32,352 bases of DNA from Deltaproteobacteria bacterium (lineage in GTDB: Bacteria; Desulfobacterota; Syntrophia; Syntrophales; JAFGIO01), in NCBI GenBank assembly GCA_016929555.1, contig JAFGIO010000246.1, forward strand, positions 1 through 32,352, read 5' to 3'. Below, piece by piece: positions 2,744 through 31,239 of the stretch; position 1 is the stretch's first letter; each line of letters starts with the position of its first letter. The notes under the pieces were generated by a model, which made no database searches, was not told where the DNA came from, and saw nothing but the letters and a program-made list of their open reading frames with translations. A program made the position numbers and the translations under genes.

Positions 2744-3061
2744 CTCCACCTCCCGTCGTTGAATGTTCACCACTGATTCGCCTGCGCCCATCCGGCGGAC
2801 ACATCATCGCTGCAGGCCGCAGGCAGACTGAGCGCATACCCCTAAACCGTCGAAAAGCATTGGGAGCATACTAAAAAACAGGGGTTTCATCAATGTTAAA
2901 AAAGAAACGGCTCCTTCACCGGAAACCTACCCGTCCGGGAAGATCCCCGGTACGTCAGTGGCAAATCGCCAAGTGAAATGCCCAAGCGCTCCCTAAAGGG
3001 GGAAACCCGCACCGCAATGCAGGATATAAGTTGACTTTCCCTCAGTCATATGGTAGAGGCT

Positions 3062-3155
3062 GCGCAATTCAATTTTCCTTCCGGAGGGCATAGGAAAAGC
3101 CCTCCCGAGTGAGGAAATATCTATAAAAGAAGGCAATGCGCCCGTTTCCGTCGGG
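3062..3155 (+). promoter_or_regulatory. Candidate structured 5' leader upstream of the formate dehydrogenase cluster
   Basis: Nested hairpin TTTCCT(3074-3079)/AGGAAA(3112-3117) enclosing perfect GGAGGGC(3083-3089)/GCCCTCC(3099-3105). Possible closing pair GCGCA(3062-3066)/TGCGC(3137-3141), then a small CCCG/CGGG hairpin. A TTGACT -35-like hexamer lies at 3031. Confidence 0.35.
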
Positions 3156-3225
3156 ATCTGGAATCAAACCGGGTTTTCAAGAATGGCGGAGGGGAGGCGC
3201 CGTGAACGGCCATCGGATGGTGTAA

Positions 3226-3588
3226 ATGGATATAGAAGCGGTGATCGGTTCCCTGAATTTGGAGGTTCTATCCGGAAAAGAGCGGTTGAAAACAGAGGTC
3301 CGGGGAGGGTATACCGGAGACCTGCTCAGCGATGTCATGGCAAACAGCAAGGAGGGCGACCTCTGGATCACCCGACAAACCCATCCGAATATCGTTGCGG
3401 TTGCGAGCCTCAAAGAACATGCGGGCATCATTCTCGTTGCCGGAAGCGAGCCCGCAGGCGAAACCCTGGAGCGGGCCGCCAACGAAAACATTCCCATTAT
3501 GGTCTCGGAGCTCTCTGGCTTCGAGGTCACGGGCAGATTATATAATCTGATCACGAAGAAAGAAAGCGAAACGGTGTCGCAGAGATAA
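3226..3588 (+). CDS. DRTGG domain protein
   Basis: 120 aa: GGYTGDLLSDVMANSKEGDLWITRQTHPNIVAVASL, characteristic of the small DRTGG proteins that accompany multimeric Fe-hydrogenase/FDH clusters. Confidence 0.8.
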   Translation: MDIEAVIGSLNLEVLSGKERLKTEVRGGYTGDLLSDVMANSKEGDLWITRQTHPNIVAVASLKEHAGIILVAGSEPAGETLERAANENIPIMVSELSGFEVTGRLYNLITKKESETVSQR

Positions 3589-3590
3589 AG

Positions 3591-3618
3591 AAAAGACCAT
3601 GGAGAATGGTCTTTTTTT
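3591..3618 (+). terminator. Intrinsic terminator/attenuator between the DRTGG and PHP genes
   Basis: Perfect 10-bp stem AAAAGACCAT(3591-3600)-GGAGA-ATGGTCTTTT(3606-3615) running into a 7-T tract (3612-3618). Confidence 0.8.
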
Positions 3619-3645
3619 ATCCGCGGACGGCGCAGGATACGGATC

Positions 3646-4383
3646 ATGCTCAGGGCTTTTCGCTGTGATCTCCACATCCACACATGCCTGTCGCCCTGTG
3701 CGGAACTCGGCATGTATCCGCGGGCAATCGTAAACAAGGCCATGGCCGAACATCTCGATATTATTGCTATATGTGACCACAATTCCTCGGAAAACGTGCC
3801 CTATGTACAGAAGCTGGCCCTCGGCACGGGACTGACCGTTCTCCCAGCCATGGAGATCAATACCTCCGAAGAGGTTCATCTGCTGGCGCTTTTTGACCGA
3901 TTCGAAGATCTCGACCGGCTCCAGACCCTCATCTATGACCACCTTCCAGGCAGGAACAACGAGGAAGTTTTCGGCTGCCAGGCCATCGTCAACGATCAAG
4001 ACGAAGTGGAAGGCTTCAACGAAAGGCTGCTCATCGGGGCGACGGAACTGGCCCTGGGGGAATGGATCGATCACATTCACGGCTTAGGAGGCCTCGCCGT
4101 GGCCTCCCATATCGATCGGGAAAGCTTCAGCGTCATCAGCCAATTGGGTTTTATCGGCGAGGATATTCCCTTCGACGCCCTGGAGGTAACGCACAGGACG
4201 GGCATCCAGGGCGCACGCCGGCGTTATCCGGAACTCGCCACCCGCCCCATGTTGACCGCTTCCGACGCCCATGCCATAGACGATATAGGCAAGGGTCTCA
4301 CCATGATCTATCTTCGGGGTGCGACAACGGCGGAATTGAAGCTGGCCTTCGAAGGGCGGATGGGCCGGCAGATCCGGGAATAG
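3646..4383 (+). CDS. PHP domain phosphoesterase
   Basis: 245 aa: FRCDLHIHTCLSPCAELGMYP..., DIIAICDHNSSENV, LTASDAHAIDDIG; PHP metal-binding motifs. Confidence 0.88.
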   Translation: MLRAFRCDLHIHTCLSPCAELGMYPRAIVNKAMAEHLDIIAICDHNSSENVPYVQKLALGTGLTVLPAMEINTSEEVHLLALFDRFEDLDRLQTLIYDHLPGRNNEEVFGCQAIVNDQDEVEGFNERLLIGATELALGEWIDHIHGLGGLAVASHIDRESFSVISQLGFIGEDIPFDALEVTHRTGIQGARRRYPELATRPMLTASDAHAIDDIGKGLTMIYLRGATTAELKLAFEGRMGRQIRE

Positions 4384-4386
4384 GCC

Positions 4387-4935
4387 ATGATCGAGCTCTC
4401 GCTGCATGTGCTCGACATTGCGGAAAACTCGACCCGAGCCGGCGCAAAAAACGTTTATATCACCATCGTAGAAGATACGCTCAGGGACCGTCTTTCCCTT
4501 GAGATTCGCGACGACGGCGAGGGGATGTCCAGAGAGACCCTGGAGCGGGCGATGGATCCCTTTTTCACATCGAAGAAGGTCCGCAGGGTCGGCCTCGGCC
4601 TGCCCATGCTCGCACAGGCCGCAGAGCAGGCGGGCGGCAGCCTCAAATTGGAGTCTGAATTGGGGAAAGGAACGCTTGTCCGCGTGGAATTCCAGTTGAG
4701 CCATATCGACCGGCAGCCCCTCGGCGACATGGCGGGCACGCTTGCGACCCTGATCGCCGGAAATGGAATCGTGGATTTCATATACAGCCATCGACGCGAT
4801 GATCGGGAATTCTTGCTCGATACGCACGAAATACGCAGCGAACTTGAAGATGTTCCGATAACCCACGTGGAGGTGCTCAATTATATCAGGCGACAGATCA
4901 AAGAGGGATTAAAGGAGATAGAGGCGATACCGTAA
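4387..4935 (+). CDS. ATP-binding protein (HATPase_c, GHKL), standalone
   Basis: 182 aa: N-box ENSTRAGAKNV, G1 IRDDGEGM, G2 VGLGLPM; no HisKA or receiver domain. Confidence 0.85.
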   Translation: MIELSLHVLDIAENSTRAGAKNVYITIVEDTLRDRLSLEIRDDGEGMSRETLERAMDPFFTSKKVRRVGLGLPMLAQAAEQAGGSLKLESELGKGTLVRVEFQLSHIDRQPLGDMAGTLATLIAGNGIVDFIYSHRRDDREFLLDTHEIRSELEDVPITHVEVLNYIRRQIKEGLKEIEAIP

Positions 4936-4965
4936 ACGCGTTGTGTGTGAAGGAGGACAGATTGC

Positions 4966-5463
4966 ATGAATCATGACGATAGGTCGGAATTGTTGAAGGA
5001 ATTTTCGGAAGAACAGCTGGATAGTTTGGACAGGATCATAGAAAAATACAAAAACAAACCCGGCGGCTTGATCCCTGTTCTGGAAGAAGCCCAGGTGACC
5101 CTCGAATACCTGCCGGTTCCAGTCCAGAAAAGGATCGCCAAGGGATTGAATCTTCCCCTGAGCCGCGTTTATGGGGTTGTGACGTTCTATTCATTCTTCA
5201 CCATGACGCCCCGAGGCAAACACACGGTCCGCGTCTGTCTGGGTACGGCATGCTATGTCAGAGGCGGAAAGGCGATCGCGGAAACCCTCGAGAAGGAATT
5301 CGGCATCAAGGAAGGCGAAACAACGGCGGACCGGATGTTTACTTATGAAACGGTTCGCTGCCTCGGCGCCTGCGGATTGGGACCGGTAGTCGTGGTTGAT
5401 TCCGATGTACACGGCCGGGTAAAACCGTCAAAAGTTAGAGAAATTCTGAACCAATATCATTAA
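4966..5463 (+). CDS. NuoE-like NAD(P)H dehydrogenase [2Fe-2S] subunit
   Basis: 165 aa: VYGVVTFYSFFTMTPRGKHTVRVCLGTACYVRGG...VRCLGACGLGPVVVVD. RBS GAAGGAGG upstream. Confidence 0.93.
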   Translation: MNHDDRSELLKEFSEEQLDSLDRIIEKYKNKPGGLIPVLEEAQVTLEYLPVPVQKRIAKGLNLPLSRVYGVVTFYSFFTMTPRGKHTVRVCLGTACYVRGGKAIAETLEKEFGIKEGETTADRMFTYETVRCLGACGLGPVVVVDSDVHGRVKPSKVREILNQYH

Positions 5464-5478
5464 CAGAGGTAAACACCT

Positions 5479-5862
5479 ATGGCGAAATTAAAGATCGAAG
5501 ATTTGAAAAAAATCAAAGAGAAGGTTCACTCGGAAACGGCCCTGAGGGAGGGGGACAGGCGGGTGAAGATCACCGTTCATATGGGAACTTGCGGCATTGC
5601 CTCCGGGGCCAGGGAAGTCATGGATTCCCTGATGGCAGAGATCGAGGAAGCCGGCGTGACGGACGTGATCGTGACGACCTCGGGATGTATGGGCCTGTGC
5701 AGCAGGGAACCCCTGGTTACCGTAGAGATTCTCGGCCAGGAACCGATCAAGTATGAATACATGAACCCAAACAAGATGAGGCAGGTCTTCAAGAGACACG
5801 TCCTGCAGGGTGAGATTCAAACGCCCTTCGTGCTCGCAAAGGGGGCGGAGATCCTGAAATGA
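5479..5862 (+). CDS. Thioredoxin-like [2Fe-2S] ferredoxin
   Basis: 127 aa: VKITVHMGTCGIASGAREVMDSL...VTTSGCMGLCSREPLVTVE; four-Cys thioredoxin-fold ferredoxin pattern. Confidence 0.88.
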   Translation: MAKLKIEDLKKIKEKVHSETALREGDRRVKITVHMGTCGIASGAREVMDSLMAEIEEAGVTDVIVTTSGCMGLCSREPLVTVEILGQEPIKYEYMNPNKMRQVFKRHVLQGEIQTPFVLAKGAEILK

Positions 5863-5938: not shown

Positions 5939-8900
5939 ATGAAAGTTTTTCGTTCCCATATACTCGTCTGTGGTGGGACAGGCTGTCGTGCCTCGGGAAG
6001 CCAGAACGTAAAAAAGGCCCTCCTGGCAGAACTGATCAACAGAAATCTCTCCGAAGAGATCAAGGTCGTCGAAACGGGCTGCAATGGCTTCTGTGCCATG
6101 GGACCCATCATGGTCGTCTACCCCGATGGGGTGATCTACATGCTCGTACAGCCGGAGGACATTCCCGAACTGGTGGAAGAGCATCTGGTCAAGGGGCGCA
6201 TCCTGGAGAGACTGCTCTACAGGGAGCCGACGACCGAGGCGGTCATCCCCACGATGCAGGAGATACCCTTCTTCGCGCTTCAGGAACTGCGGGTGCTGCG
6301 GAACCGGGGACTCATCGATCCGGAAAAAATCGAGGAGTACATCGCCCGCGACGGCTACGCCGGCATGGCCAAGGCCCTGACGGAGATGACACCCGAGGAT
6401 ATCGTCAAGGAGATGCTCGCCTCGGGGCTCCGGGGGCGGGGCGGGGCGGGGTTCCCGACCGGGCTGAAATGGCAGTTCGCCGCCCAGTCCCAGGGCGACA
6501 CGAAATACGTCCTGTGCAACGCCGATGAGGGTGATCCCGGCGCCTTCATGGACCGGAGCGTCCTCGAAGCGGATCCCCATGCCGTACTCGAAGGCATGGT
6601 CATCGCTGCCAGGGCCATCGGTTCCCACCAGGGATATATCTACTGCCGCGCCGAGTATCCCCTGGCGATTCAACGCCTGAACATCGCCATAGACCAGGCA
6701 AGGGAAATGGGATTGTTGGGCACCGACATCCTCGGAACCGGTTTCGATTTCAATCTCGAAATCTACCAGGGCGCCGGAGCCTTCGTCTGCGGCGAGGAAA
6801 CAGCCCTCATGACCTCTATCGAAGGAAAAAGGGGAATGCCGAGACCCCGTCCGCCCTTCCCGGCCGTCGCAGGTCTCTGGCAGAAACCCAGCATCCTCAA
6901 CAATGTGGAAACCTTTGCCAATGTGGGACAGATCATCTTCCGCGGCGCCCAGTGGTTCGCCAGCGTGGGTACGGAAAAGAGCAAGGGAACGAAGGTATTC
7001 GCCCTGACCGGCGACGTCAACAATGTCGGTCTCGTTGAAGTTCCCATGGGCACCACTCTGGGCACGATCGTTTACGACATCGGCGGCGGCATTCCCAAAG
7101 GCAAAAAATTCAAGGCCGCCCAGTTGGGCGGCCCCTCGGGCGGCATGATTCCGGTGCAGCACCTGAACGCGCCGGTGGATTACGAAAAAGTGACCGAACT
7201 GGGAGCCATTATGGGTTCCGGAGGCATGATCGTCATGAACGAGGACTCCTGCGCCGTCGATATGGCCAGGTTCTTCATGGACTTCTGCCAGGACGAATCC
7301 TGCGGCAAGTGCACCCCCTGCCGCGAGGGAACCAAAAGGATGCTTGAAATCCTAAACAATATCACAACGGGCAAGAGCAAGGAGGGGGACATCGAATTGC
7401 TCGAAGAGATGGCCGCGATCATCAAAGACTCGGCGCTGTGCGGCCTCGGCCAGACGGCGCCGAATCCTGTGCTGAGCACCATCCGGTACTTCCGGCAGGA
7501 ATATGAAGATCACATCCTGCGCCATCACTGCTCGGCGGCGGTTTGCAGTGCCCTCTTCAAATCGCCCTGCCAGCATACCTGCCCCATCGAGATGGACATT
7601 CCTTCCTACATCGCCCTGATCAGGGCGGAGCGCTTCGAGGACGCCTACAGGATCCTGTTGCGCACCAATCCCTTCCCGTCCGTCTGCGGCCGGGTCTGCG
7701 ACCACAAGTGCCAGTCCAAGTGCCGCCGGGGGAAACTGGATGAACCCATCGCGATCAAGTTCCTGAAGCGTTTCATCACGGACAATGCATCGAGACCCAA
7801 GATCGAAGCCGTTCCCGTAACCCGAAAGGAAAAGATCGCCGTGATCGGCGCCGGACCGGCGGGCTTGACGGCAGCCCGCGATCTCGCCCAACGGGGCTAT
7901 AAAGTCACCGTTTTCGAAGAACTGTCCGAACCCGGGGGCATGCTGCGCTGGGCCATACCTTCCTACCGTCTTCCCCGGGACATCCTGGCGAGGGAAATCG
8001 AGGACGTCCGGACTCTGGGCGTGGAGATTTGCTGCAACACCCGCATCGGCAGGGACCTTTCCTGGGAACAGGTCGACACCGATTACGATTACGTCTATCT
8101 TGCACCCGGCGCCCACAAGAGCCAGAAGATGGATATCCCCGGCGAAGATCTGAAAGGCGTATACGGCGGCGTGGAGTTCCTGAGGGACTTCAACGCCAAT
8201 GAGGAGGATTGGCTTGCGGGCAAGAAGACCCTCGGTTCACGGGTGGCGGTCATCGGCGGCGGCAATTCCGCCATCGATGCGGCCCGCGTCGCGGCTCGTC
8301 TCGGCGCCGACGTGCTGATCCTTTACCGAAGGGAGCGCAAGGACATGCCGGCGGCCGAGGAAGAAATTGAAGCGGCCGAACACGAAGGGATCCAAATCGA
8401 ATACCTTGTCGCTCCGGTGAAGATCACCGAGATCAACGGCGCGGTTACCGGCATTACCTGCCAGCGGATGAAGCTTGGCGAGTTCGACCGCAGCGGCCGG
8501 AAGCGACCCGATCCCATTGCGGGTTCCGAATATACGGTCAGCGTGGATTCGGTTATCGCCGCCATCGGCCAGATTCCGGACATGACCTTCGTTCCCGGCG
8601 ACAGCGGTGTAGCCGTCAACAGATGGTCCTGCTTCGACCTGGCCGGCGGCAGCCAGTCCCAGACGATGAATCCGAAGTTCTTCGCCGGCGGTGACGCCGT
8701 TACCGGACCGGACACGGTCATCGGGGCCATTGCCGCAGGTCATCAGGCCGCGAAGGACATCGATGCCGCCATTCGGGCGAAAAACGGCGAACAGCCCTAT
8801 GAAGCGCCCCCGGAAGAAAAGATCGATATCCCTCTGATCATCGACGAGGAAACCCAGGAAGCACCGCAGACAAAGATGCCCGAAATGGCGGCGGCGGCAA

Positions 8901-8995
8901 GGCGCCGCAGTTTCGCTGAAGTGGAATTGGGATTTACCCGGGAGGAAGCCATTGGTGAAGCGATTCGCTGCCTCCGCTGCGATGCGGAAATATAA
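5939..8995 (+). CDS. NuoF-like NADH/FMN subunit with N-terminal [2Fe-2S] domain, fused to a C-terminal GltD/NfnB-like FAD/NAD(P) oxidoreductase domain
   Basis: 1018 aa. N-terminus CGGTGCRASGSQ...CNGFCAMGP; NuoF GLRGRGGAGFPTGLKW, ESCGKCTPCREGTKRML; then GltD-like SPCQHTCPIEMDIPSYIALI, CGRVCDHKCQSKCRRG, two Rossmann motifs (VIGAGPAGLTAARDLAQRG; VIGGGNSAIDAARVA), EEAIGEAIRCLRCD. RBS AAGGAGG. Confidence 0.9.
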   Translation: MKVFRSHILVCGGTGCRASGSQNVKKALLAELINRNLSEEIKVVETGCNGFCAMGPIMVVYPDGVIYMLVQPEDIPELVEEHLVKGRILERLLYREPTTEAVIPTMQEIPFFALQELRVLRNRGLIDPEKIEEYIARDGYAGMAKALTEMTPEDIVKEMLASGLRGRGGAGFPTGLKWQFAAQSQGDTKYVLCNADEGDPGAFMDRSVLEADPHAVLEGMVIAARAIGSHQGYIYCRAEYPLAIQRLNIAIDQAREMGLLGTDILGTGFDFNLEIYQGAGAFVCGEETALMTSIEGKRGMPRPRPPFPAVAGLWQKPSILNNVETFANVGQIIFRGAQWFASVGTEKSKGTKVFALTGDVNNVGLVEVPMGTTLGTIVYDIGGGIPKGKKFKAAQLGGPSGGMIPVQHLNAPVDYEKVTELGAIMGSGGMIVMNEDSCAVDMARFFMDFCQDESCGKCTPCREGTKRMLEILNNITTGKSKEGDIELLEEMAAIIKDSALCGLGQTAPNPVLSTIRYFRQEYEDHILRHHCSAAVCSALFKSPCQHTCPIEMDIPSYIALIRAERFEDAYRILLRTNPFPSVCGRVCDHKCQSKCRRGKLDEPIAIKFLKRFITDNASRPKIEAVPVTRKEKIAVIGAGPAGLTAARDLAQRGYKVTVFEELSEPGGMLRWAIPSYRLPRDILAREIEDVRTLGVEICCNTRIGRDLSWEQVDTDYDYVYLAPGAHKSQKMDIPGEDLKGVYGGVEFLRDFNANEEDWLAGKKTLGSRVAVIGGGNSAIDAARVAARLGADVLILYRRERKDMPAAEEEIEAAEHEGIQIEYLVAPVKITEINGAVTGITCQRMKLGEFDRSGRKRPDPIAGSEYTVSVDSVIAAIGQIPDMTFVPGDSGVAVNRWSCFDLAGGSQSQTMNPKFFAGGDAVTGPDTVIGAIAAGHQAAKDIDAAIRAKNGEQPYEAPPEEKIDIPLIIDEETQEAPQTKMPEMAAAARRRSFAEVELGFTREEAIGEAIRCLRCDAEI

Positions 8996-9019: not shown

Positions 9020-11716
9020 ATGAGCGGTATCAAACTCACGATCAACGGCCTTGAAGTCGAGGCGCAGCCGGGACAGACCGTTCTCGAGGTTGCCCGCGAC
9101 AACCACATCTATATCCCCACGCTTTGCCAGTATCCGGGCACCACCAATGTCGGCGCCTGCCGTGTCTGCCTGGTGGAGGTGGAAAACGCCCGGACGCTCG
9201 TCGCTTCCTGCTGCATGCCCGTTACATCCGGCATGGTTGTCAGAACGAACACCGAAAGGGTCAGAAAGGCCCAGCGCTTGATCGTGGAGCTCCTGTGGTC
9301 GTCGGGAGATCATAATTGCCTCACCTGCGAGCGCAACGGAAATTGCGAACTCCAGGACCTGGTATACTGGCTGAAGATCGACAAACCCCGTTTCAATATC
9401 GATCCTCCCGGTTATGAAATCGAGGCCACCAATACGATGATCCAGCGCGACCTCAACAAGTGCATCCTCTGCGGCCGCTGTGTTCGCGCCTGCAATGAAA
9501 TCCAGATCAACGAAGTTCTGGACTTCACCATGCGGGGGTCCGAAGCCAAAGTAGGTCCGGCCTTCGACCTCGATTATATTCAATCGGAGTGCGTCTTCTG
9601 CGGCGAATGCGTCAACGTCTGCCCCACCGGCGCCCTCACCTTCAAGCAGGCACGGTTCGCCGGACGGCCCTGGGAAATGAAAAAGGTCCGCACGACCTGC
9701 ACATACTGCGGCGTCGGCTGCCAGATGGATCTCAATGTCCATGAAGGAAAGATCGTCTCGGTCACCGGCAACCGCGAATACGGCACACCCAATACCGGAA
9801 GCCTCTGCGTCAAGGGGCGCTTCGGGGTCGATTTCGTTCATCATCAAGACCGGCTGAAAAAACCGCTCCTGAGACGGCAGAAGGGCGGCGAGTTGACCGA
9901 GGCAAGTTGGGACGAGGCCATCGACTTCGTCGCCGAAAGGCTGTCGGCCCTCAAGAAGGAATACGGCTCCGACAGCATTGCGGGGCTCTCTTCCGCCCGC
10001 TGTACGAATGAGGAAAATTACCTTTTCCAGAAATTCATGAGGGCGGTGATCGGATCGAGACACGTCGATCACTGCGCCCGTCTCTGACACTCCGTAACGG
10101 TGGCCGGTCTGGCCGCCGCATTCGGCAGTGGCGCCATGACGAATTCCATCGACGAGATCGAATTCACCGAGGTGATCCTGGCAACGGGCACGAACACGAC
10201 GGAGAACCACCCCATCATAGGCATGAAGGTGAAGCGGGCGGTCCGCCAGCAGGGCGCGAAGCTGATCGTCATCGATCCCCGCGAGATCGCCCTGACCAAG
10301 TACGCCGACATCTGGCTACGCCAGAAGCCGGGCACCGATGTGGCCGTTCTCAACGGCCTCATGAACGTCATCATCAGCGAGAAACTCTACGACAAGCCAT
10401 ATGTGGAAGAACGCACCGAGGGTTTCGAGGCGTTGGCGAAGGTCGTGGAGAAATACACTCCGGACTACGTGGAGCGGATCTCGGGGGTCCCGGCGGAAGA
10501 TCTCAAGGCGGCAGCCCGGCTCTATGCCAAGGCGAACCGGGCCTCGATCCTTTATTCCATGGGCATCACACAGCACATCTCCGGAACGGACAACGTCAAA
10601 TCCGTTGCCAACCTGGCCATGCTCTGCGGCAACGTGGGCATAGAGGGAGGCGGCGTCAATCCCTTACGGGGCCAGAACAACGTCCAGGGCGCCTGCGATA
10701 TGGGCTGCCTGCCCAACGTGTTGCCCGCCTACCAGCCTGTCGGCAACGATGAGGCGCGGGCAAAGTTCGAGAAGGCCTGGGGGGTTGCCCTGCCGGCAAC
10801 GCCGGGACTGACCATCATGGAGATGATGAATGCGGCCCATGCGGGAGACCTCAAAGCCCTGTATATCATGGGTGAAAATCCCATGCTCTCCGACCCGGAT
10901 CTGGCCCATGTAGAGGAATCCCTGAGAAACCTCGATCTGCTGATCGTTCAGGACATCTTCCTGTCGGAGACGGCGGCCCTGGCGGACGTGGTCCTTCCCT
11001 GCGCCAGTTTCGCCGAAAAGGACGGCACCTTCACAAACACGGAACGCCGGGTCCAGCGGATCCGGAAGGCCGTCGAAGCGCCGGGAGAAGCAAAGGCCGA
11101 CTGGGAGATCATCACCGCCCTTTCCAACCGGATGGGGTATGCCATGCCCTATACGTCCGCCGAGATGATCATGGAGGAAATCAACCAACTAACACCCAGT
11201 TACGCCGGGATCACCTATGGAAGGATCGAGAGGGAAGGACTTCAGTGGCCCTGCCCCAATACGGATCACCCGGGGACACAATACCTGCACAAGGACCGAT
11301 TCACCCGCGGACGCGGTCTCTTCCATGCCGTTGAGTACGTCCCCCCGGCGGAACTTCCCGATCAGGATTACCCGCTGATCCTTTCTACGGGCCGGGTTCT
11401 CTATCAGTATCACACAGGCACCATGACCCGGCATTCAAAGGGAACCACGGAACGCTATCCCGAGAACCTCCTGGAGATTCACCCGAACGATGCCACAAAA
11501 TACGGGATCAAGGATGGCTCCCTCGTAAAGGTGGCCTCGCGGCGGGGTAAGGTAAAAATCAAGGCCGCCGTCTCGCAACGTTCCCCAGAGGGAACCGTCT
11601 TCATGACTTTCCATTTCCGGGAAGCGGCTGCGAATCTGCTGACGAATCCCGCCCTGGATCCCGTGGGTAAGATTCCGGAATACAAGGTCTGCGCCGTCCG
11701 GGTTGAAGCGGCGTGA
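9020..11716 (+). CDS. fdhA: Formate dehydrogenase catalytic subunit (selenoprotein, NuoG-like N-terminal FeS domain plus Mo/W-bisPGD domain), read through UGA=Sec at 10085-10087
   Basis: ORFs 9020..10087 and 10100..11716 are in the same frame and separated only by TGA. Junction [44 protein letters not shown] matches the FdhF/FDH active-site region. N-terminal [2Fe-2S], [17 protein letters not shown], 2x[4Fe-4S] and CTYCGVGC motifs; C-terminal GEDP-type [63 protein letters not shown]. Confidence 0.95.
10085..10117 (+). promoter_or_regulatory. UGA selenocysteine codon with bacterial SECIS element
   Basis: TGA 10085-10087; hairpin GGTGGCC(10099-10105)-GGTCT(10106-10110)-GGCCGCC(10111-10117), 7 bp including one G.U. 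The loop begins 18 nt after the TGA, as in my recollection of the E. coli fdhF SECIS. Confidence 0.93.
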
Positions 11717-11827
11717 TGAAATCGGGGTACAGAGACCAAACGTCGGCACCCGGCAGTTTTTTAAAAGGGAATGCCGAATAGGAAAGGGGGGGCTCAGAGG
11801 CGCCCCTCCGAGGATTCTTTAAACGGG

Positions 11828-12513: not shown

Positions 12514-13386
12514 CTACTCCACGGGCAAATCCTTCCTGAACATCATGAAGTATGCCACTCCAATGAAGAGAAAACCGCCAAAGATATTCCCTATCGTGAC
12601 GGGTATGAGGTTCCAGAACCAGACATCGGACCAGGGAAGACCTCCGTTGGCAAGGAGAAGCCCCCCCTTCTGCGCGATAACGGCAGGATACCAGTCGCAT
12701 AAGAACTTCCCTGCGGGAAGAAAATACATATTGGCCACGCAATGCTCGAAGCCTGAGGAGACGAAGGCCATGATCGGAAACCAGATACCGAAAAACTTGC
12801 CAATCACATCGTCCGCCGTGATGGCGAGAAGAATGGCGATGTTGACCAGAAAGTTACAACCGATAGCTTTCAGGAAACAGGACCAGAGTCCCATGGCCCC
12901 GACGGCCTTGTATTCGAGAATTTTCCCCGTCGCTATGCCCACCGCGGTCATACCGAAGGCATTGACCGTCATGGTGCCATCGGCCTGTCCGCTCACGAAT
13001 GGACCCATGGTCATGACATAGGCATACGCCAGTGAGCCTACGAGGTTGCCCACATATACCCACACCCAGTTTCGGATCACGTCGCCCCAGGTGACCTTCT
13101 TCATCATGGCGGCCATGGGCACGATCATACAGTCACCGGTAAAGAGTTCCATACCGGTCAGGACGATGGCGATCAGGCCGACGGGGAATACGGCCCCACC
13201 AACAAGTTTTGCGATTCCCGGGGTTGCTACACCCGTTACGCATACTGTGCAAAGTGCTCCTCCGATTGCGATGTACGCACCCGCCATGAATCCTCTGAGC
13301 AACAGGTTGAAGATGGAGAGCTTCGCCTTGCCAACTCCCGCAGTACCGATGAGAGAAACCATTTTTGCCGGGGGATTAAAAGCCAT
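12514..13386 (-). CDS. Formate/nitrite transporter (FNT) family, probably formate
   Basis: ORF 12514..13404. Start MAFNPPAKM at 13386 has GAGGAGG upstream. FNT features: LLLRGFMAGAYIAIGGAL, VGLIAIVLTGMELFTGDCMIVP, WVWVYVGNLVGSLAYAY, GFEHCVANMYFLPAG, VTIGNIFGGFLFIGVAYF. Confidence 0.92.
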   Translation of the reverse strand: MAFNPPAKMVSLIGTAGVGKAKLSIFNLLLRGFMAGAYIAIGGALCTVCVTGVATPGIAKLVGGAVFPVGLIAIVLTGMELFTGDCMIVPMAAMMKKVTWGDVIRNWVWVYVGNLVGSLAYAYVMTMGPFVSGQADGTMTVNAFGMTAVGIATGKILEYKAVGAMGLWSCFLKAIGCNFLVNIAILLAITADDVIGKFFGIWFPIMAFVSSGFEHCVANMYFLPAGKFLCDWYPAVIAQKGGLLLANGGLPWSDVWFWNLIPVTIGNIFGGFLFIGVAYFMMFRKDLPVE

Positions 13387-13519
13387 AAAAGAATACCTCC
13401 TCAATCCATAATAGTTTTGTTAGAAAAGGTCCCGCTTCTGGGGACATTCACATTCCAGAACATCTTTTCGAACAACACGATCGTATTGCCGCACCAACGT
13501 CATCCCTCACATTTTATAA

Positions 13520-18445: not shown

Positions 18446-18473
18446 AAAAAAACAGGCCCTATGTTCCCTGTTT
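18446..18473 (-). terminator. Intrinsic terminator overlapping the stop codon of the activase gene
   Basis: On the minus strand: AAACAGG-GAACATAGGG-CCTGTTTTTTT; the 7-bp stem and U-tract contain the TAG stop. Confidence 0.65.
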
Positions 18474-21400
18474 CATTCTTTTTTCATGGAGCCTCAGCGC
18501 CTGCATGACAAAGACCTCCATCTTCGCCGTGATGATCTGGGGAAAGGGATTGCCGTCACTCTCGATGGCCAAAAAAGGGAGTTCATCCACGTCCTCGAGG
18601 GAATCCCATTTTTTTCCATGATGCTCCCTCCAGCCCCGGCTCATTTCCCGCGTGAGAATGGCCTCGGAGATCCGGTTCGGCATGCACCCGAAGGGACCGA
18701 TGGCGATGGCGCCGCAGTAGGGTTCGGGGACCTCAGCGACGGCCGCTCCGACGGTCAGGATGGCCTCGCCGGTCAGCCTCGGATTGATCAGCGGCTGTGC
18801 CATATGGATCAGGTGGTCGACGTCTTCCATCACCGGACGAATTAACCCCGAGCGTGACAGGATGGTCTTGATCACCCTTTCGTAATGTCGCATCCAGGCG
18901 AGCCGTATTTGAAGCGAAAGACGTTGGCCAAATCCGGGCACCCTGCCCTCCACGCGATTTTTATAGCACCAGTCCGTGTAATAAACCCATTCCCCAATGC
19001 CGGCCACCTTCGTGGCGAGGCCATAACCGGCCAGCTTCTCCACCAGGAACTGCCTCGAGATGTCGTCGTGGCGCACGAAGATCTCGCCGGTGAGCAAGAC
19101 CGTCGGAGTTTCCGCAAGGGTTCTTTTCAGCGGGATGGCTTCAAGGCTTGCAGAAACCGAGGATAGGATCTTGCGGAGATCGCCGAAGCGGTTCGACCGC
19201 TCGATCGCCTCGACGATCCGATTCTGTTCCCTCTCATATATCTCGACAGCGGCTGCCGGTTCGACGGCATTCGCCAAAAGGATCGGATAGATGGCCTGCA
19301 TCGCGTCGGCGATCATCATGCAGATCCAGATCCGGAGGGTGAACCCGGCATCGAAGACCCCCCGGTAGCCATTCGCCGCATTGAGCGAGAGAAGGGCCAC
19401 GTTCTCGATGCCCGCCTCGGTGATCTGCTGATGGATGAAGGGCGAATACTGTCCGAACCGGCAGGGTCCCGAGGTCGTCGGCATGAAATAGACGAGAAGC
19501 TCTTCGGGATCTTCGCGTTCCTTCAGGTACTTAAGGAGCGTCCCCGTCGTCAGCAGCAGGGGGAGGCATTCCTTGCAGCTCGTATTGCCCCGGCCCAGTT
19601 TCAGGACCTCCTCGCCTGCAGGCGGCAGGGCCGTCGCCCTTATCCCTAAAGACCGAAAGAGCGCTGCCGCCTCTCTCAGCAGAAAATAGCCCATGGACGG
19701 AAAGACCAGGTGCACCCGCGGATGGGTAAGGGGATAATTCCTGCCCTGAGAATCGACGACCTCCTGCCTGGCAGGATCGAAATAGGCCGGCTGCGCCTTC
19801 CGGATACGCCTGTTTCCCCTCTTCCCCTCCCTGCGCGACAGTTCCCGGTAGTTCCGGACGATGTCCAGGAAGGCTTCGATCCTTGTCTCCAGGCCGGCAT
19901 CGGCCACATGGCTGTCAAGTTCCAGGATCAGAAAGGGTTTTCTTCCCATGATTCTGCTGAAGTAGCCGACGAGAAACGAATCGGGACCGCAGGAAAAATT
20001 CGTGATGTAGCAACCGAAAAGCTGAGGATGCCTCTCGACGAAAGCGGCCCCCTTGAGAATCGTCTGCCCTGATGACCAGTACATGTCATCCTGGAGCGGC
20101 TCATCCGCTATGGGCAGAAAGTTGACAGGGATGACCGGCACCCCTCGGGTGGCGAATTTGTGGGGGATGCCCATGTTCGCTTCCGTCACGAAGGCATTGT
20201 AGGACCTGCCGAGAAGGACGATACCGCAGCGTTCCGAATCCTTCTCGATCTCTTCAAGGAATCGCCTTCCCTCCTCGGCCATATCTTCCTGAACGCGCTC
20301 CTGGACGGCAACGGCTTCGGCATAGGCCTCCCGTGCACGACGCCTGTCGCACCCCAGCGCCACTGCCAACTCCGAAAAGGACTTGTCCGCCCGGGCATAA
20401 CCCTTCGAAAAATCGATGACCGGACTCAGCACCCTCCCCGACGCCTTGAGGCTGCGGAACACCTCATGATCCTTGAAAGCGCTGGCAAGATAATGGGGCT
20501 CGGCCTGAACGATCGGGCAGGTCGTGCTGTCCCTGCAGCCCTTTTCGACGAAAAGGCCGTTGATCTGTGGAAGAAAAAGATAATCGGGCCGGCCCTCCAG
20601 AAGACCGGAGAGCAGTCCGTGGGCGAGCTCGGCGGGATAGCAGAAAGGTGCCCTTTTTCGCTCGATACCCTTCTGCCGGATGCCCTCGGAGACGACGATC
20701 CTGAAACCGATCCTTTCGAAGAAATGCCGGTAGAGGGGAAGAAGGGCATTCACCTGGAAGGATTTGTTCAAACCGATCACAGGCGCCGCCCGTTCCTCCG
20801 GAGGATGGGGCGGCGGTCCTGCCGGCTCGTCGAAAATGAGCTGCTCGTGACGCCGCACGAGGTTCAACTTTCCCGTATCCGTCTCGATGGAAAAGCGCAA
20901 GTTGTACCAGCGGTTGCAGGCGCCGCCGAAGGGATAGGTCTTCCCGTCGATCTCGATTCTGGCGATTTCGCACTTCCGGTCGCACTTCTCCTTCCCCCCT
21001 TTGCAGATGAAGGGTTTCCCGTAATCGACCCTTCTATCCCGAAGGGTTTTCAGCGAAAAGTCCCCTTCCTCCAGCAGGCCAAGTTTCATCCGGCGCTTGA
21101 TCTCGAGGGCCACCCCGAAGGCGCCCATCAGGCCCGGCTCCGGAGGCACAACGATGCGCTTGCCCGTCAGGGCGGCCATGGCGACCGGCACGGCCCGGTT
21201 GTAGCAGACGCCCCCCTGCATGAAAATGCGGTCCCCCACGGACCGATTTCCCTTCACCCGGTTGCTGTAATTCATGCAGATGGAATAGACCAGTCCGGCG
21301 ACGATATCCTCCCTGCTCAGGCCTTCGTGAGCGGCATTCTTGATATCGCTGCTGATGAAGGCGGCGCATTGGTCGTTGAAGTTGGGAGGCGCCTTTCCCA

Positions 21401-22793
21401 TCATGGCCAGATCGCCGATCTCCTCCATGGCGATCCCCATCGTCTCGCGGGCCGACTCCTCCAGAAAGGAGCCGGTTCCCGCACTGCAGGCGTCGTTCAT
21501 GGCGTAGTCCGAGGGAATGCCGTTGCGGATGTAGGTGTATTTCGCGTCCTGGCCGCCGATCTCGAAGATCGTGTCCACCTCCGGGTCGTAATGGAGGGCG
21601 GCCGCGGCGTGGGCGATGATCTCGTTGACGATGCCTCCGGTCATGGCGTGCAGCCCGGCAATTTGCCTGCCGGAACCCGTAACGCCCAAACCAACGATCC
21701 GAAGCCCGTCGCCGATTGCCCCCAACCGATCGCATAGGCTCGCATAACAGTCCCGGGAGGCCTGGACGGGATTGCCGTTCGTCCGGAGGTAGACGGATGC
21801 AAAAACCAGCTCGTCGTCCTGCCGCATCAGGACCGCCTTGGTGGTCGTGGAGCCGACGTCCAACCCAAGGATGCATCGATCCCCCTCGCGGGCGACGCCC
21901 CCTTCGGCCGTCCTGAACTCGACCAACTCCTCGTAATCAGACAAAGGGGAAAGGGTGGAAAAAGAGCTGACCGCCTGACCGAAGAGACTCTGCGAACCGG
22001 GGAAAGGCGCCGTTTCGTGTTTCAGCGCCCAGAGGGCCGACCCCAGGGCCTCGAAATAGGGGGCCTCTTCGGGAACGATCAACTGCTCGATCTCCCTTTG
22101 AAGATAGCCGATCATGACGGGATTTTGGGCGGTACCGCCGATGATCATCATGGTATGGCGGGGAATCTGCTTGATCATCTCCAGGATTTTAACAGCCATC
22201 ATCTCGCAGAGGCCCGCGGCGATTCTCCCCTTGGGGATGCCCTTGTTTGCGGCATGGGTGCAATCGCTCTTGCAGAAGACGCTACAGCGTCCCGAAACCC
22301 GGTAGGGTTCCTCCTCGCGGGCGTATCGGAAGGCCTCCTGCAAGGACAGCCCCAGACGCCCGATCTGCTGCATGAAGAATTCGCCGGTACCGGAGGCGCA
22401 TTTGTTGCCGGTCTGCACGGAGCTGATCCGTCCGTCCCGGCCCAGCACATAGACAAGGCACGTTTCGCCGCCGGCGCTGATGACGGCATCGAAATGCCGC
22501 CCCTGCCCGTTCAAGTGATGGAGCGCTTCTTCCACCGCTTCTGTTTCTGCAATGGACGTCAGACGGACGGCCTGCCGGAACTTCCGGCCCGTAACGGCGA
22601 TGCGATCGTAGTCTCTCCAGGAGGTTTTTTCAAAGACATCGAGCAGGGAGCGGCGAGGGTTTCCATCATGGGACTTGTTGAACAAGACCGTCTTTTTTAT
22701 CGTTCCATCGCCCTGTTTTTCGACACCCACCGCCGAAAGATTCGTGGCACCCACACAGATACCAAGCGTTTTCATAGGTTTCACGCAATGCAT
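18459..22793 (-). CDS. Acyl-CoA dehydratase activase / BadF-BadG-BcrA-BcrD ATPase fusion (two ASKHA ATPase modules plus DUF2229 and HgdB-like regions)
   Basis: 1444 aa. GICVGATNLSAVGVE...KCASGTGEFFMQQIGRL, then ILGLDVGSTTTKAVLM...FEIGGQDAKY...NDACSAGTGSFLEESA, then FCYPAELAHG, TTSGPCRFGQYSPFIHQ. Confidence 0.88.
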   Translation of the reverse strand: MHCVKPMKTLGICVGATNLSAVGVEKQGDGTIKKTVLFNKSHDGNPRRSLLDVFEKTSWRDYDRIAVTGRKFRQAVRLTSIAETEAVEEALHHLNGQGRHFDAVISAGGETCLVYVLGRDGRISSVQTGNKCASGTGEFFMQQIGRLGLSLQEAFRYAREEEPYRVSGRCSVFCKSDCTHAANKGIPKGRIAAGLCEMMAVKILEMIKQIPRHTMMIIGGTAQNPVMIGYLQREIEQLIVPEEAPYFEALGSALWALKHETAPFPGSQSLFGQAVSSFSTLSPLSDYEELVEFRTAEGGVAREGDRCILGLDVGSTTTKAVLMRQDDELVFASVYLRTNGNPVQASRDCYASLCDRLGAIGDGLRIVGLGVTGSGRQIAGLHAMTGGIVNEIIAHAAAALHYDPEVDTIFEIGGQDAKYTYIRNGIPSDYAMNDACSAGTGSFLEESARETMGIAMEEIGDLAMMGKAPPNFNDQCAAFISSDIKNAAHEGLSREDIVAGLVYSICMNYSNRVKGNRSVGDRIFMQGGVCYNRAVPVAMAALTGKRIVVPPEPGLMGAFGVALEIKRRMKLGLLEEGDFSLKTLRDRRVDYGKPFICKGGKEKCDRKCEIARIEIDGKTYPFGGACNRWYNLRFSIETDTGKLNLVRRHEQLIFDEPAGPPPHPPEERAAPVIGLNKSFQVNALLPLYRHFFERIGFRIVVSEGIRQKGIERKRAPFCYPAELAHGLLSGLLEGRPDYLFLPQINGLFVEKGCRDSTTCPIVQAEPHYLASAFKDHEVFRSLKASGRVLSPVIDFSKGYARADKSFSELAVALGCDRRRAREAYAEAVAVQERVQEDMAEEGRRFLEEIEKDSERCGIVLLGRSYNAFVTEANMGIPHKFATRGVPVIPVNFLPIADEPLQDDMYWSSGQTILKGAAFVERHPQLFGCYITNFSCGPDSFLVGYFSRIMGRKPFLILELDSHVADAGLETRIEAFLDIVRNYRELSRREGKRGNRRIRKAQPAYFDPARQEVVDSQGRNYPLTHPRVHLVFPSMGYFLLREAAALFRSLGIRATALPPAGEEVLKLGRGNTSCKECLPLLLTTGTLLKYLKEREDPEELLVYFMPTTSGPCRFGQYSPFIHQQITEAGIENVALLSLNAANGYRGVFDAGFTLRIWICMMIADAMQAIYPILLANAVEPAAAVEIYEREQNRIVEAIERSNRFGDLRKILSSVSASLEAIPLKRTLAETPTVLLTGEIFVRHDDISRQFLVEKLAGYGLATKVAGIGEWVYYTDWCYKNRVEGRVPGFGQRLSLQIRLAWMRHYERVIKTILSRSGLIRPVMEDVDHLIHMAQPLINPRLTGEAILTVGAAVAEVPEPYCGAIAIGPFGCMPNRISEAILTREMSRGWREHHGKKWDSLEDVDELPFLAIESDGNPFPQIITAKMEVFVMQALRLHEKRMKQGT

Positions 22794-22938
22794 TGAAAAA
22801 GAGATCTATCGAATCGTAGTAGCATTCAAGCCGGCGGATCACGATGGTCCCTTCGACCGAACCGGATCGACGGCATGTATACCATGAATCGGAAACGAGG
22901 ACAACCAGGAGCCCCGAAGAGAAGGCACACAAATGGAA

Positions 22939-22968
22939 AGGCCCACACACCGAAGGGTGCGTGGGCCT
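22939..22968 (-). terminator. Stem-loop downstream of mdh
   Basis: AGGCCCAC-A-CACC-GAAG-GGTG-C-GTGGGCCT: 8 + 4 bp with one A/C mismatch. Confidence 0.7.
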
Positions 22969-23007
22969 CGATCCGATCTGCAGGATTGGTTGTTTTGAAA
23001 GGTTTAA

Positions 23008-23976
<969 letters not shown>

Positions 23977-24014
23977 TTATTCCTTCATTCATTGACAGCA
24001 TCAAAAAATCACCC

Positions 24015-24851
24015 TTATCGCTCCACCGTATAGGCCGGAGCGGCGATCTTCTCCTTACGCTCGATAGTGTCCGGCAATTTGTGAACCTGGGCGCATTTCC
24101 TGGCGCCGCCGAGCTTGAAGTAATCCCGGACCAGATCCTTCTTCATGAGCTGAATCGCCCGCGCCGGATCGACTCCCTTCGGGCAGGCGTTGGAACACTC
24201 GCCGGCATAATGGCAACTGAATACGCCGTGATTTCTGGTAACGATCTCCTTGCGATCCTTTGCACCGTCATCCCTGGTATCCGCATTGTAGCGGTAGGCC
24301 TGGGCCAGGGGCATGGGCCCCAGATATTCCCGGTCCGTGGCCATGGTCGGACAGGCCGCCATGCAGATACCGCACTTGATACAGTAGGTGAACTGCAGGT
24401 ATTCTTCGAGTTCATGGGCGCTCTGGAAGAATTCCCCGGTAGGTTCCTCCATCTCCTTCGCGTCGCTGCGTTTGATGTAGGGCTGCATCCCTTTATGCAC
24501 CCCAAACATGGGCACCAGATCCGGCACCAGGTCCCTGATAATGTTGAAATTGGGCAAAGGCGCAACGGTCAGAGCCGATTGCGTCACATCGAGGATCTGT
24601 GTATTGCAGGCCAGTGCAGGCTTCCCGTTGATCAGCATGGCGCAGGAACCGCAGACGCCCATGCGGCAGGAAAAGCGGAAGGCCAGGGTGGGGTCCTGGT
24701 TCTGCTTGATCTCGTGCAGCCCGTCCAGAACCGTCATTCCCTGCACAACGGTAAGGTCGTATCTCTGCTGTCGAGGAACCTCATCCCGTTCGGGATCGAA
24801 ACGACGGACATAAACGGCGATTTGATATTTTTTCTCGGTATCTTTCTCCAT
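24015..24851 (-). CDS. sdhB: Succinate dehydrogenase/fumarate reductase iron-sulfur subunit
   Basis: 278 aa: CRMGVCGSCAMLINGKPALAC, CIKCGICMAACPT, CSNACPKGVDPARAIQLMKK. Confidence 0.93.
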   Translation of the reverse strand: MEKDTEKKYQIAVYVRRFDPERDEVPRQQRYDLTVVQGMTVLDGLHEIKQNQDPTLAFRFSCRMGVCGSCAMLINGKPALACNTQILDVTQSALTVAPLPNFNIIRDLVPDLVPMFGVHKGMQPYIKRSDAKEMEEPTGEFFQSAHELEEYLQFTYCIKCGICMAACPTMATDREYLGPMPLAQAYRYNADTRDDGAKDRKEIVTRNHGVFSCHYAGECSNACPKGVDPARAIQLMKKDLVRDYFKLGGARKCAQVHKLPDTIERKEKIAAPAYTVER

Positions 24852-24863
24852 TTTCCCACCTTC

Positions 24864-25238
24864 CTATAGTACTGTCTGCAGCGACCTGGCGGCGATGGCC
24901 GCATAGGTCCCGATGCAGAAAAGAATGATCCCGACGATCCACAGAAGGACGGTCAGCGATCGCTCCGCCTGCCCCTTGAGTCCCAGCTCGAAGAGTATGG
25001 TGCGCAACCCGTAGAAGCCGTGATAGAGTGCCGCACCCAACAGGATGATGTACGTAACCGTAAAGAACATGTTCCGGCCGCGATAGACGACGTTTTCCCA
25101 GGCAATGGCCTCTCCGCCGGCAGGATTAAAGAGCTGAAGGAAGCCCGTAAGATGCATGACCGCCATATGCAGGCCCAGAAGCACGAACATCACGATACCC
25201 GCAATGATAAACCAACTCCAGTAAGCTGTTTCCTTCAT
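24864..25238 (-). CDS. sdhD: Succinate dehydrogenase membrane anchor (SdhD-like)
   Basis: 124 aa, three predicted TM segments, located between sdhC and sdhB; GAALYHGFYGLRTILFELG. Confidence 0.8.
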   Translation of the reverse strand: MKETAYWSWFIIAGIVMFVLLGLHMAVMHLTGFLQLFNPAGGEAIAWENVVYRGRNMFFTVTYIILLGAALYHGFYGLRTILFELGLKGQAERSLTVLLWIVGIILFCIGTYAAIAARSLQTVL

Positions 25239-25248
25239 GATGACCTCC

Positions 25249-25692
25249 CTAACCCAGTAAAAAGATGTTGTAGCCGCCGGCTGCCATCAGGATGGCGGCA
25301 AGGACCATCATGATGACCATGAGCGGCCGCTGCGTGTTCAGGGACGACCGATAGGGATAGACCGGCTCTTCCGCCTTGCCGACGGCTAGGCCCCATTCGA
25401 TGAGGATCAGCCGGATGCCGTTGAGGGCATGAAAGGCAAAACCTACAAAGACGAGGAATTCCCCGAACTTGAAAACAGGCGTTTTCAGGGTTTCCATGGC
25501 CGCGTTCCAGGATTCCGGGCCCAGAATCCGGATGGAGCTCTCGAAGATATGGAGCATGAAAAAGGTGAGGATACCCAGCCCCGCCACCCGATGGATGATG
25601 TAGAGGTAGCGCTCCACGCCCCACCGGCCTCCGCCGAGCCAGCCCAGAATGCCCAGATGGTTGTCGTACTGTTTGCTTTTTGCCATTTTCAT
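25249..25692 (-). CDS. sdhC: Succinate dehydrogenase cytochrome b subunit (SdhC-like)
   Basis: 147 aa: RYLYIIHRVAGLGILTFFMLHIFESSI, GFAFHALNGIRLILIEWG. Confidence 0.85.
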   Translation of the reverse strand: MKMAKSKQYDNHLGILGWLGGGRWGVERYLYIIHRVAGLGILTFFMLHIFESSIRILGPESWNAAMETLKTPVFKFGEFLVFVGFAFHALNGIRLILIEWGLAVGKAEEPVYPYRSSLNTQRPLMVIMMVLAAILMAAGGYNIFLLG

Positions 25693-25697
25693 CCCCC

Positions 25698-27449: not shown

Positions 27450-27521
27450 CCACCTGAATCAGTAAATTTCACAAGACCTGCTTGCCTTGACGTTGCGTTA
27501 TGATTTAGCCTCCATTCCATC

Positions 27522-28070
27522 CTATCCCTTTTTGTACTTCTGGACGTTCTGCTTGTAGAGATCGTTGCCCCGGGTGTCGTTGATGACGATCACGGGGAAG
27601 TTCTCCACCTCCAGCCTGCGGATGGCCTCGGGCCCCAAGTCATCAAAGGCGATGACCTCGGCCTTCTTGACGGCGCCGGCCAGCAGGGCGCCGGCACCCC
27701 CGGTGGCGCCGAGGTAAACGGCGCCGTATTTCTTCATGGCTTCGACCACGGGGGCCGCCCGCGGTCCCTTGCCGATCATGCCCCGCAGGCCCTTCTCGAT
27801 GAGTCTCGGAGCATAGGCATCCATGCGGTAGCTTGTCGTCGGCCCCGCCGCCCCGATGGGGCGACCGGGGGGCGCCGGCGTCGGACCGACATAGAATATG
27901 AGCTGCCCGTCGATATCGAAGGGCAGCGGTTCTCCTTTGTCGAGAAGATCGACCAACCGTTTGTGGGCGGCGTCCCGACCGGTATAAATAACCCCGGAAA
28001 TCATGACCTTATCGCCTATCTCCAGGGCATCCACATCTTCTCTTTTCACAGGTGGCTTCAGTGTCTTCAA
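27522..28070 (-). CDS. Class I fumarate hydratase, beta subunit (C-terminal domain)
   Basis: In ORF 27522..28445. Real protein probably starts at TTG 28070 (AAAGGAGAGAGACG-TTG). VMISGVIYTGRDAAHKRLVDLL, GPTPAPPGRPIGAAGPTTSYRMD, GKGPRAAPVVEAMKKYGAVYLGATGGAGALL. Confidence 0.88.
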   Translation of the reverse strand: MKTLKPPVKREDVDALEIGDKVMISGVIYTGRDAAHKRLVDLLDKGEPLPFDIDGQLIFYVGPTPAPPGRPIGAAGPTTSYRMDAYAPRLIEKGLRGMIGKGPRAAPVVEAMKKYGAVYLGATGGAGALLAGAVKKAEVIAFDDLGPEAIRRLEVENFPVIVINDTRGNDLYKQNVQKYKKG

Positions 28071-28126
28071 CGTCTCTCTCCTTTGCTTCAGGGGAACGGA
28101 TTTGAAATCCGTCCCCCTTGCCTGAA

Positions 28127-28966: not shown

Positions 28967-28981
28967 CGCTGTCTATTCCTC

Positions 28982-30904: not shown

Positions 30905-31021
30905 AATAAAATCCTTTCATCGTGAAATGATTGACGTTTATAAGGTGTTCTGTTGAGTTTCTCCCTTGACTATCCTACAAGCGGCGTCGCCGTCAGGCAA
31001 CCTTTCCGCCACAGGGACATC

Positions 31022-31210
31022 CTAATACACTCGCAACTGCCAGAGCCGGCGCTGCAACATCAAGTCCTGACGGCCTGCGATGGCCCAGAGATTGATCTTT
31101 TCCACCACAGGCGCGACGACTGCTTCCGCTTCCACAAATGTCGTCTCCTCGATGTAGGCCCTCACAGCCGCCGTAATGGCCGCGATTATTTTCGGATCTA
31201 ATTCCTCCAT
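31022..31210 (-). CDS. Small carboxylase-associated protein (62 aa)
   Basis: MEELDPKIIAAITAAVRAYIEETTFVEAEAVVAPVVEKINLWAIAGRQDLMLQRRLWQLRVY, in the frame of the listed ORF 31022..31672. Sits between the two carboxyltransferase genes with an operon-like gap. Confidence 0.65.
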   Translation of the reverse strand: MEELDPKIIAAITAAVRAYIEETTFVEAEAVVAPVVEKINLWAIAGRQDLMLQRRLWQLRVY

Positions 31211-31239
31211 ACCATTTCCCCATTCCTTACCAATGATGG

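What the first reader, a model, noticed from the sequence alone, without database searches (positions are those of the whole stretch)
9020..11716. Formate dehydrogenase split by a UGA selenocysteine codon; the ORF calls are two halves of one selenoprotein
Seen: the two listed ORFs are in the same frame, separated only by TGA at 10085-10087. The junction reads [15 protein letters not shown], the Sec/Cys active-site position of FdhF-family enzymes. The TGA is followed after 11 nt by a perfect GGTGGCC/GGCCGCC stem capped by GGTCT. The GGTCT begins 18 nt after the TGA, the same spacing I recall for the E. coli fdhF SECIS. Known: the bacterial SECIS lies directly downstream of UGA with a GGUCU-type loop bound by SelB. 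Inferred: the host encodes SelA/B/C/D, and standard annotation would report a frameshifted or truncated FDH and lose the active site.
Basis: partly seen in the sequence, partly recalled or inferred. Interest (0 to 1): 0.75.

Follow-up and report, generated by a model that had tools for sequence, protein, structure and literature searches.

The report
Ordinary selenocysteine-containing formate dehydrogenase gene

Summary
Confirmed and ordinary. The TGA at 10085-10087 lies in frame inside one 898-residue formate dehydrogenase alpha subunit (TIGR01591, 917 bits over the full model). Among 110 homologous loci the codon is TGA in 99, Cys in 11, never anything else. A bacterial SECIS hairpin follows (Rfam SECIS_3, 49 bits, E=1.6e-8, but below the gathering score of 63). 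Independent support: the strongest synonymous-codon constraint of the whole gene sits on it, its pairs covary, and U17/G23/U24 are kept in 68/68/67 of 68 distinct sequences. The genome has selA, selB and a selD that is itself a selenoprotein; selC is present but cut by a contig end after 29 nt, downstream of moeA as in relatives. The host is a Syntrophales-type deltaproteobacterium; Syntrophus aciditrophicus is already reported with four Sec-FdhA (PMC1794560). Corrections: the "perfect" stem contains one U-G pair, at the U17 position, and the SECIS model does not reach its curated threshold. Mildly interesting neighbour: the beta subunit (5939-8995) is a HydB/BfuB-like flavoprotein whose ferredoxin-type tail is replaced by a GltD/NfnB-type FAD module, suggesting an NAD(H)- and NADP(H)-linked formate dehydrogenase for which I found no characterised match.

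The parts
9020..11716 (+). fdhA: 898-aa formate dehydrogenase alpha subunit, Sec at residue 356; N-terminal NuoG/HydA-like [2Fe-2S]/[4Fe-4S] region (1-210) fused to the molybdopterin (FdhF-type) domain (220-895)
   Evidence: (TIGR01591 916.6 bits, cutoff 666)
10085..10087 (+). in-frame TGA read as selenocysteine
   Evidence: 99 TGA / 11 Cys / 0 other among homologous loci
10088..10133 (+). bacterial SECIS element (Rfam SECIS_3 match covers 10082-10140)
10099..10117 (+). apical SECIS hairpin GGUGGCC-GGUCU-GGCCGCC; U17 = 10101, G23 = 10107, U24 = 10108
11714..11716 (+). true stop TGA, followed directly by a second in-frame TGA (11717-11719)
4966..5463 (+). NuoE/HoxE/HydC-like [2Fe-2S] subunit, probable gamma subunit
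   Evidence: conserved upstream of fdhA in relatives
5479..5862 (+). small thioredoxin-like [2Fe-2S] protein (weak family match)
5939..8995 (+). probable beta subunit: HydB/BfuB-like FMN protein (1-542) fused to GltD/NfnB-like FAD/NAD(P) module (about 541-1018)
12514..13404 (-). formate/nitrite (FNT) family transporter, downstream and convergent; found in 20 of 80 related loci as sampled
3226..3588 (+). DRTGG-domain protein, upstream gene of the cluster
3646..4383 (+). PHP-domain (TrlF-like N-terminal) protein, upstream gene of the cluster
4387..4935 (+). HATPase_c (histidine-kinase-like ATPase) protein, upstream gene of the cluster

Best explanation
The locus encodes the catalytic subunit of a cytoplasmic molybdenum- or tungsten-dependent formate dehydrogenase with selenocysteine as the active-site metal ligand. 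UGA at 10085-10087 is decoded by SelB carrying Sec-tRNA-Sec; SelB recognises the hairpin 18 nt downstream (U17, G23, U24), while UGA without such a hairpin (the gene's own end at 11714) still terminates. The alpha subunit most likely works with the co-directional NuoE-like and BfuB-GltD subunits to move electrons between formate/CO2 and NAD(P)H, with an FNT channel moving formate. Shown here: frame, Sec/Cys alternation, selected SECIS, Sec genes in the genome, conserved operon. Inferred: actual Sec insertion, metal, electron partner and direction.
For: TIGR01591 full length, well over cutoff. Codon TGA in 99 and Cys in 11 of 110 homologous loci, nothing else. The 30 best matches in genomes of the order each carry one TGA inside an otherwise open frame. 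The synonymous-constraint maximum of the gene lies at codons -3 to +9 around the TGA (mean KL about 1.11 bits against a gene mean of 0.17) and is not seen in the Cys homologs. SECIS stem paired in 97.7% of cells, slid versions 17-68%; 20 doubly changed cells against at most 9 in 1000 shuffles. U17 68/68, G23 68/68, U24 67/68; a review names U17 and G23 as SelB contacts (PMC8659212). selA 594.6 bits, selB 369.8, selD 377.8 with its own in-frame TGA. selC: contig C192 ends 29 nt into a sequence 28/29 identical to relatives' tRNA-Sec, right after moeA as in 19 of 20 relatives. Within the same order a Cys copy (G012) has lost the GGUCU loop and stem pairs.
Against: SECIS_3 score is below Rfam's gathering cutoff here and in all relatives tested, and one Cys homolog (L128) also scores 42.6 bits, so the model score alone is not decisive. 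The anticodon part of selC is not in the assembly. The Cys group for the constraint test is small (10) and more diverged. No protein evidence.
Confidence: 0.97

Rival explanations
1. TGA is a sequencing or assembly error, or a nonsense mutation, in a Cys-type enzyme (TGC/TGT to TGA): a pseudogene.
For: TGA differs from Cys codons by one base, and Cys homologs exist.
Against: The same TGA is found in the other homologous loci, in genomes assembled by many groups; the hairpin after it is under synonymous constraint and covaries; both halves remain open and conserved.
Confidence: 0.01
2. Global recoding of UGA (for example to Trp or Gly) rather than selenocysteine insertion.
For: An in-frame UGA is read through.
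Against: UGA terminates fdhA itself (doubled, 11714-11719) and ORF 5479-5862; the alternative residue in homologs is only Cys; selA/B/D are present.
Confidence: 0.005
3. Two separate polypeptides are made, the second from GTG 10100 or a later start.
For: The second frame has a start codon soon after the TGA.
Against: The molybdopterin domain (278-704) would be cut at its active site; the GTG lies inside the SECIS; homologs with Cys make one chain.
Confidence: 0.01

Closest known systems
Sec-containing FdhA of Syntrophus aciditrophicus and other deltaproteobacteria (PMC1794560: 19 selenoproteins, among them 4 FdhA and SelD)
   Same: Same family, same codon use, same broad lineage; SelD is also a selenoprotein
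   Different: No direct alignment to the S. aciditrophicus proteins was made here; this is a different, uncultured genome
E. coli FdhF SECIS (fdhF hairpin)
   Same: UGA to loop spacing of 18 nt, GGUC(U) loop, U17/G23/U24 (E. coli sequence from memory, folded)
   Different: In E. coli U17 is a bulge; here it faces G (66 of 68) or A (2 of 68), so it can pair; loop of 5 rather than 4 nt
Rhodobacter capsulatus-type FdsA (PDB 6tg9, 9wxb; also 7vw6)
   Same: Same alpha-subunit domain layout, aligned over about 890 residues; Cys in place of Sec
   Different: Cys enzymes with a non-bifurcating beta subunit; the beta subunit here is far closer to HydB
Bfu family (HydABC, Fdh-Bfu, Nfn-Bfu/Stn; PMC9304861, PMC10482914)
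   Same: Beta subunit residues 1-542 match HydB (7t2r, 818 bits; 6tg9 beta only 376 bits); N-terminal [2Fe-2S] ligands present; NuoE-like partner
   Different: HydB's last about 55 residues (ferredoxin-side clusters) are not matched; a GltD/NfnB-type FAD module is fused there (in Stn it is fused to the NuoG/FdhF-like subunit, whose FdhF domain is inactive)
Moorella thermoacetica NADP-dependent W/Se formate dehydrogenase
   Same: Sec alpha subunit with NADP-linked beta subunit (PMC5736913, PMC13040438)
   Different: Its FdhB is described with 4Fe-4S, ferredoxin-binding and NADP-binding domains, without an FMN/NuoF part (PMC5736913)

Membership tests
FdhA selenoprotein (formate dehydrogenase alpha, TIGR01591) | Full-length match over the curated cutoff | tested here: met
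   916.6 bits, cutoff 666.25, model 1-672
FdhA selenoprotein (formate dehydrogenase alpha, TIGR01591) | Sec or Cys at the active-site position | tested here: met
   UGA aligned with Cys of 6tg9/9wxb and of 11 homologs
FdhA selenoprotein (formate dehydrogenase alpha, TIGR01591) | Formate dehydrogenase activity and Sec in the protein | not testable with these tools
   needs protein work
Bacterial SECIS | Stem-loop directly 3' of UGA with conserved U17, G23, U24 | tested here: met
Bacterial SECIS | Rfam SECIS_3 (RF01989) gathering score | tested here: not met
   49 bits against 63; relatives 43-51
Bacterial SECIS | U17 bulged | tested here: inconclusive
   U17 faces G or A and is predicted paired
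Sec-decoding trait (SelA, SelB, SelC, SelD) | selA, selB, selD in the genome | tested here: met
   all over cutoff
Sec-decoding trait (SelA, SelB, SelC, SelD) | selC (tRNA-Sec) | tested here: met
   only the first 29 nt, at the end of contig C192, 28/29 identical, downstream of moeA as in relatives; the rest, anticodon included, is in an assembly gap
Bfu electron-bifurcating family | BfuB with FMN domain and N-terminal [2Fe-2S] cluster | tested here: met
Bfu electron-bifurcating family | BfuB C-terminal [4Fe-4S] clusters for ferredoxin | tested here: not met
   match to HydB stops at residue 542; a GltD-type module with its own Fe-S motifs follows
Bfu electron-bifurcating family | Coupled NAD/ferredoxin/third-substrate reaction | not testable with these tools
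   needs enzyme assays

The most novel reading that the evidence does not exclude
The Sec-FdhA is the catalytic arm of a three-way enzyme in which a HydB-like FMN site handles NAD(H) and a GltD-type FAD module fused to the same beta subunit handles NADP(H) in place of ferredoxin, so that formate/CO2 is coupled to both nucleotide pools at once: a variant of the Fdh-Bfu/Stn enzymes not described in the papers read. The fusion recurs next to Cys-FdhA in Aerophobetes, Poribacteria, Elusimicrobia and Dehalococcoidia.
Probability: 0.25. Interest if true: 0.45.

Novelty: new member of a known kind. Interest (0 to 1): 0.15.

Why it matters
For annotation: a pipeline that ignores Sec would split this gene and lose its active site, so a formate-handling enzyme of an uncultured, probably syntrophic bacterium would be missed or called a pseudogene. 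As biology it adds nothing new about selenocysteine. The beta-subunit fusion next door bears on how syntrophs couple formate to their NAD(H) and NADP(H) pools and could be tested by expressing the operon.

Tried and rejected
tRNA-Sec by Rfam in the own genome gave no match over the cutoff, only ordinary tRNAs such as Leu, Ser and Arg; a search with a relative's selC then found the truncated copy. selC is not next to selA or selB here. SECIS_3 bit scores as the discriminator between Sec and Cys genes were rejected because Cys homolog L128 scores 42.6. Sequencing error, global recoding and two-protein readings were rejected as given under the rivals. A Bfu label for the operon was considered and not given, because the C-terminal clusters of BfuB are missing. 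No structure prediction was run: sequence matches to solved structures were enough.

Full report
Observation. The two ORFs at 9020-10087 and 10100-11716 are one frame broken only by TGA 10085-10087. Read through they form one protein of 898 residues with [18 protein letters not shown] at the break. Rfam finds SECIS_3 at 10082-10140 with 49 bits and E = 1.6e-8, below the curated gathering score of 63. Folded alone, the hairpin is 3.5 standard deviations more stable than shuffles and the 46-nt element 3.1.

Identity of the protein. It matches the NCBI equivalog TIGR01591 (formate dehydrogenase alpha) over the whole model with 916.6 bits (cutoff 666) and Pfam molybdopterin, molybdopterin-dinucleotide binding and N-terminal Fe-S domains. 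It aligns over about 890 residues with the solved formate dehydrogenases 9wxb and 6tg9, which have Cys where the TGA is.

The codon in relatives. The 30 best matches in genomes of the order (the window's own included) each carry one TGA in an otherwise open frame. In 110 homologous loci (some are the same genome reached by two routes), the codon is TGA 99 times, TGT 8, TGC 3, and never anything else. The Cys cases are at 55-62% identity and come mainly from other phyla by their record titles (Aerophobetes, Poribacteria, Elusimicrobia, Nitrospira, Dehalococcoidia, actinobacterium). One closer Cys copy, at 72% in the same order (G012), reads DHCARLCHSVTIAGMVAAF and has lost the GGTCT loop (now GGCAT) and stem pairs, as expected when selection on the SECIS ends.

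The SECIS as a selected RNA. For 76 Sec-type genes, codon choice was compared with gene-wide codon use for each amino acid. The 13-codon windows with the strongest bias in the whole gene all lie at the TGA (best window starts at codon -3, mean 1.11 bits; gene mean 0.17), and codons +6 to +8 (GCC GGT CTG) are essentially invariant; the 10 Cys genes show no such peak, though that group is small and more diverged. In 68 distinct Sec-type sequences the seven apical pairs are formed in 97.7% of cells, against 17-68% when the 3' side is slid by 1-3 bases, with 20 doubly changed cells against a maximum of 9 in 1000 shuffles. Pair 15-27 (counted from the base after TGA) alternates between G-C (58) and A-U (10). 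The positions that a review names as fixed (U17, G23, U24; PMC8659212) are U in 68/68, G in 68/68 and U in 67/68. A small difference from E. coli: U17 faces G (66) or A (2), so it can pair rather than bulge out; whether it flips out when SelB binds is not known.

The machinery. The same genome (3.07 Mb, 285 contigs, 88% complete) holds selA (594.6 bits), selB (369.8 bits) and selD (377.8 bits), all over their cutoffs. SelD itself has an in-frame TGA in the motif SGSG-U-ACK. tRNA-Sec was first missing. Most relatives have it at over 70 bits, and in 19 of 20 examined a gene of one conserved family lies just upstream, recognisable as MoeA (the name rests on my reading of the sequence, no family search was run on it). 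In the own genome, contig C192 carries this gene at 66-71% identity, and the contig ends 29 bases into a sequence 28/29 identical to the relatives' tRNA-Sec. So selC is there and the assembly breaks inside it. UGA also ends fdhA (twice in a row) and the 5479-5862 ORF, so UGA is not generally recoded.

Setting. Named records closest to the gene are Syntrophaceae/Syntrophales MAGs (78% identity to UBA2251), so the host is very probably of that order. Upstream in the same direction lie DRTGG, PHP and HATPase proteins, a NuoE-like protein, a small [2Fe-2S] protein and a 1018-residue flavoprotein; this order is kept in several relatives whose loci reach far enough, while other relatives have fdhA and the FNT channel without it in the stretch held. 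An FNT channel follows on the other strand. The flavoprotein matches HydB of electron-bifurcating hydrogenases (818 bits, residues 1-542) much better than the beta subunits of non-bifurcating formate dehydrogenases (376 bits), but its tail is a GltD/NfnB-type module. The Bfu review states that true bifurcating enzymes keep five clusters in BfuB (PMC9304861); the C-terminal ones are replaced here, so I do not file it as a Bfu enzyme. In Stn a GltD module sits on another subunit and binds NADPH (PMC10482914). A mechanism coupling formate with NAD(H) and NADP(H) is therefore plausible and unproven.

Verdict. Sec-FdhA is the most widespread bacterial selenoprotein, and four are already listed for Syntrophus aciditrophicus (PMC1794560). 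New member of a known kind; interest low.

Noticed in passing
G000:C192:1-29 (L156, L163): tRNA-Sec gene cut by the contig end 29 nt in, directly downstream of a moeA-like gene; the same neighbourhood in 19 of 20 relatives examined.
   Followed up: yes
G000:C217:6548-9223 (L133): A second Sec-type FdhA paralog (53% identical) with its own SECIS_3 match (39.8 bits) in the same genome.
   Followed up: partly
G000:C160:15559-16485 (L018): SelD is itself a selenoprotein (in-frame TGA, SGSG-U-ACK).
   Followed up: yes
L052:5-2683 and 2812-5490: A Cys-type FdhA (58% identical to the window's, DFCTRFCHTPS) lies directly upstream of a Sec-type FdhA: possibly a selenium-dependent pair.
   Followed up: partly
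L098, TGA at 2308: Only Sec-type sequence with loop GGGCT in place of GGTCT (U24 changed): read error or impaired SECIS.
   Followed up: no
L128:4017-4075: Cys-type homolog that still scores 42.6 bits with SECIS_3: remnant SECIS or mere coding similarity.
   Followed up: no
window 22800-32352: Malate dehydrogenase, succinate dehydrogenase/fumarate reductase subunits, fumarase, oxaloacetate decarboxylase/pyruvate carboxylase B-type protein and carboxyl transferase in one run on the minus strand: looks like a methylmalonyl-CoA (propionate) pathway cluster.
   Followed up: partly
window 18459-22793: 1444-aa BadF/BcrAD-type CoA enzyme activase with a DUF2229 domain.
   Followed up: no
L110:14497-14558: Fluoride riboswitch (Rfam RF01734, 49.4 bits) in a related locus.
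   Followed up: no
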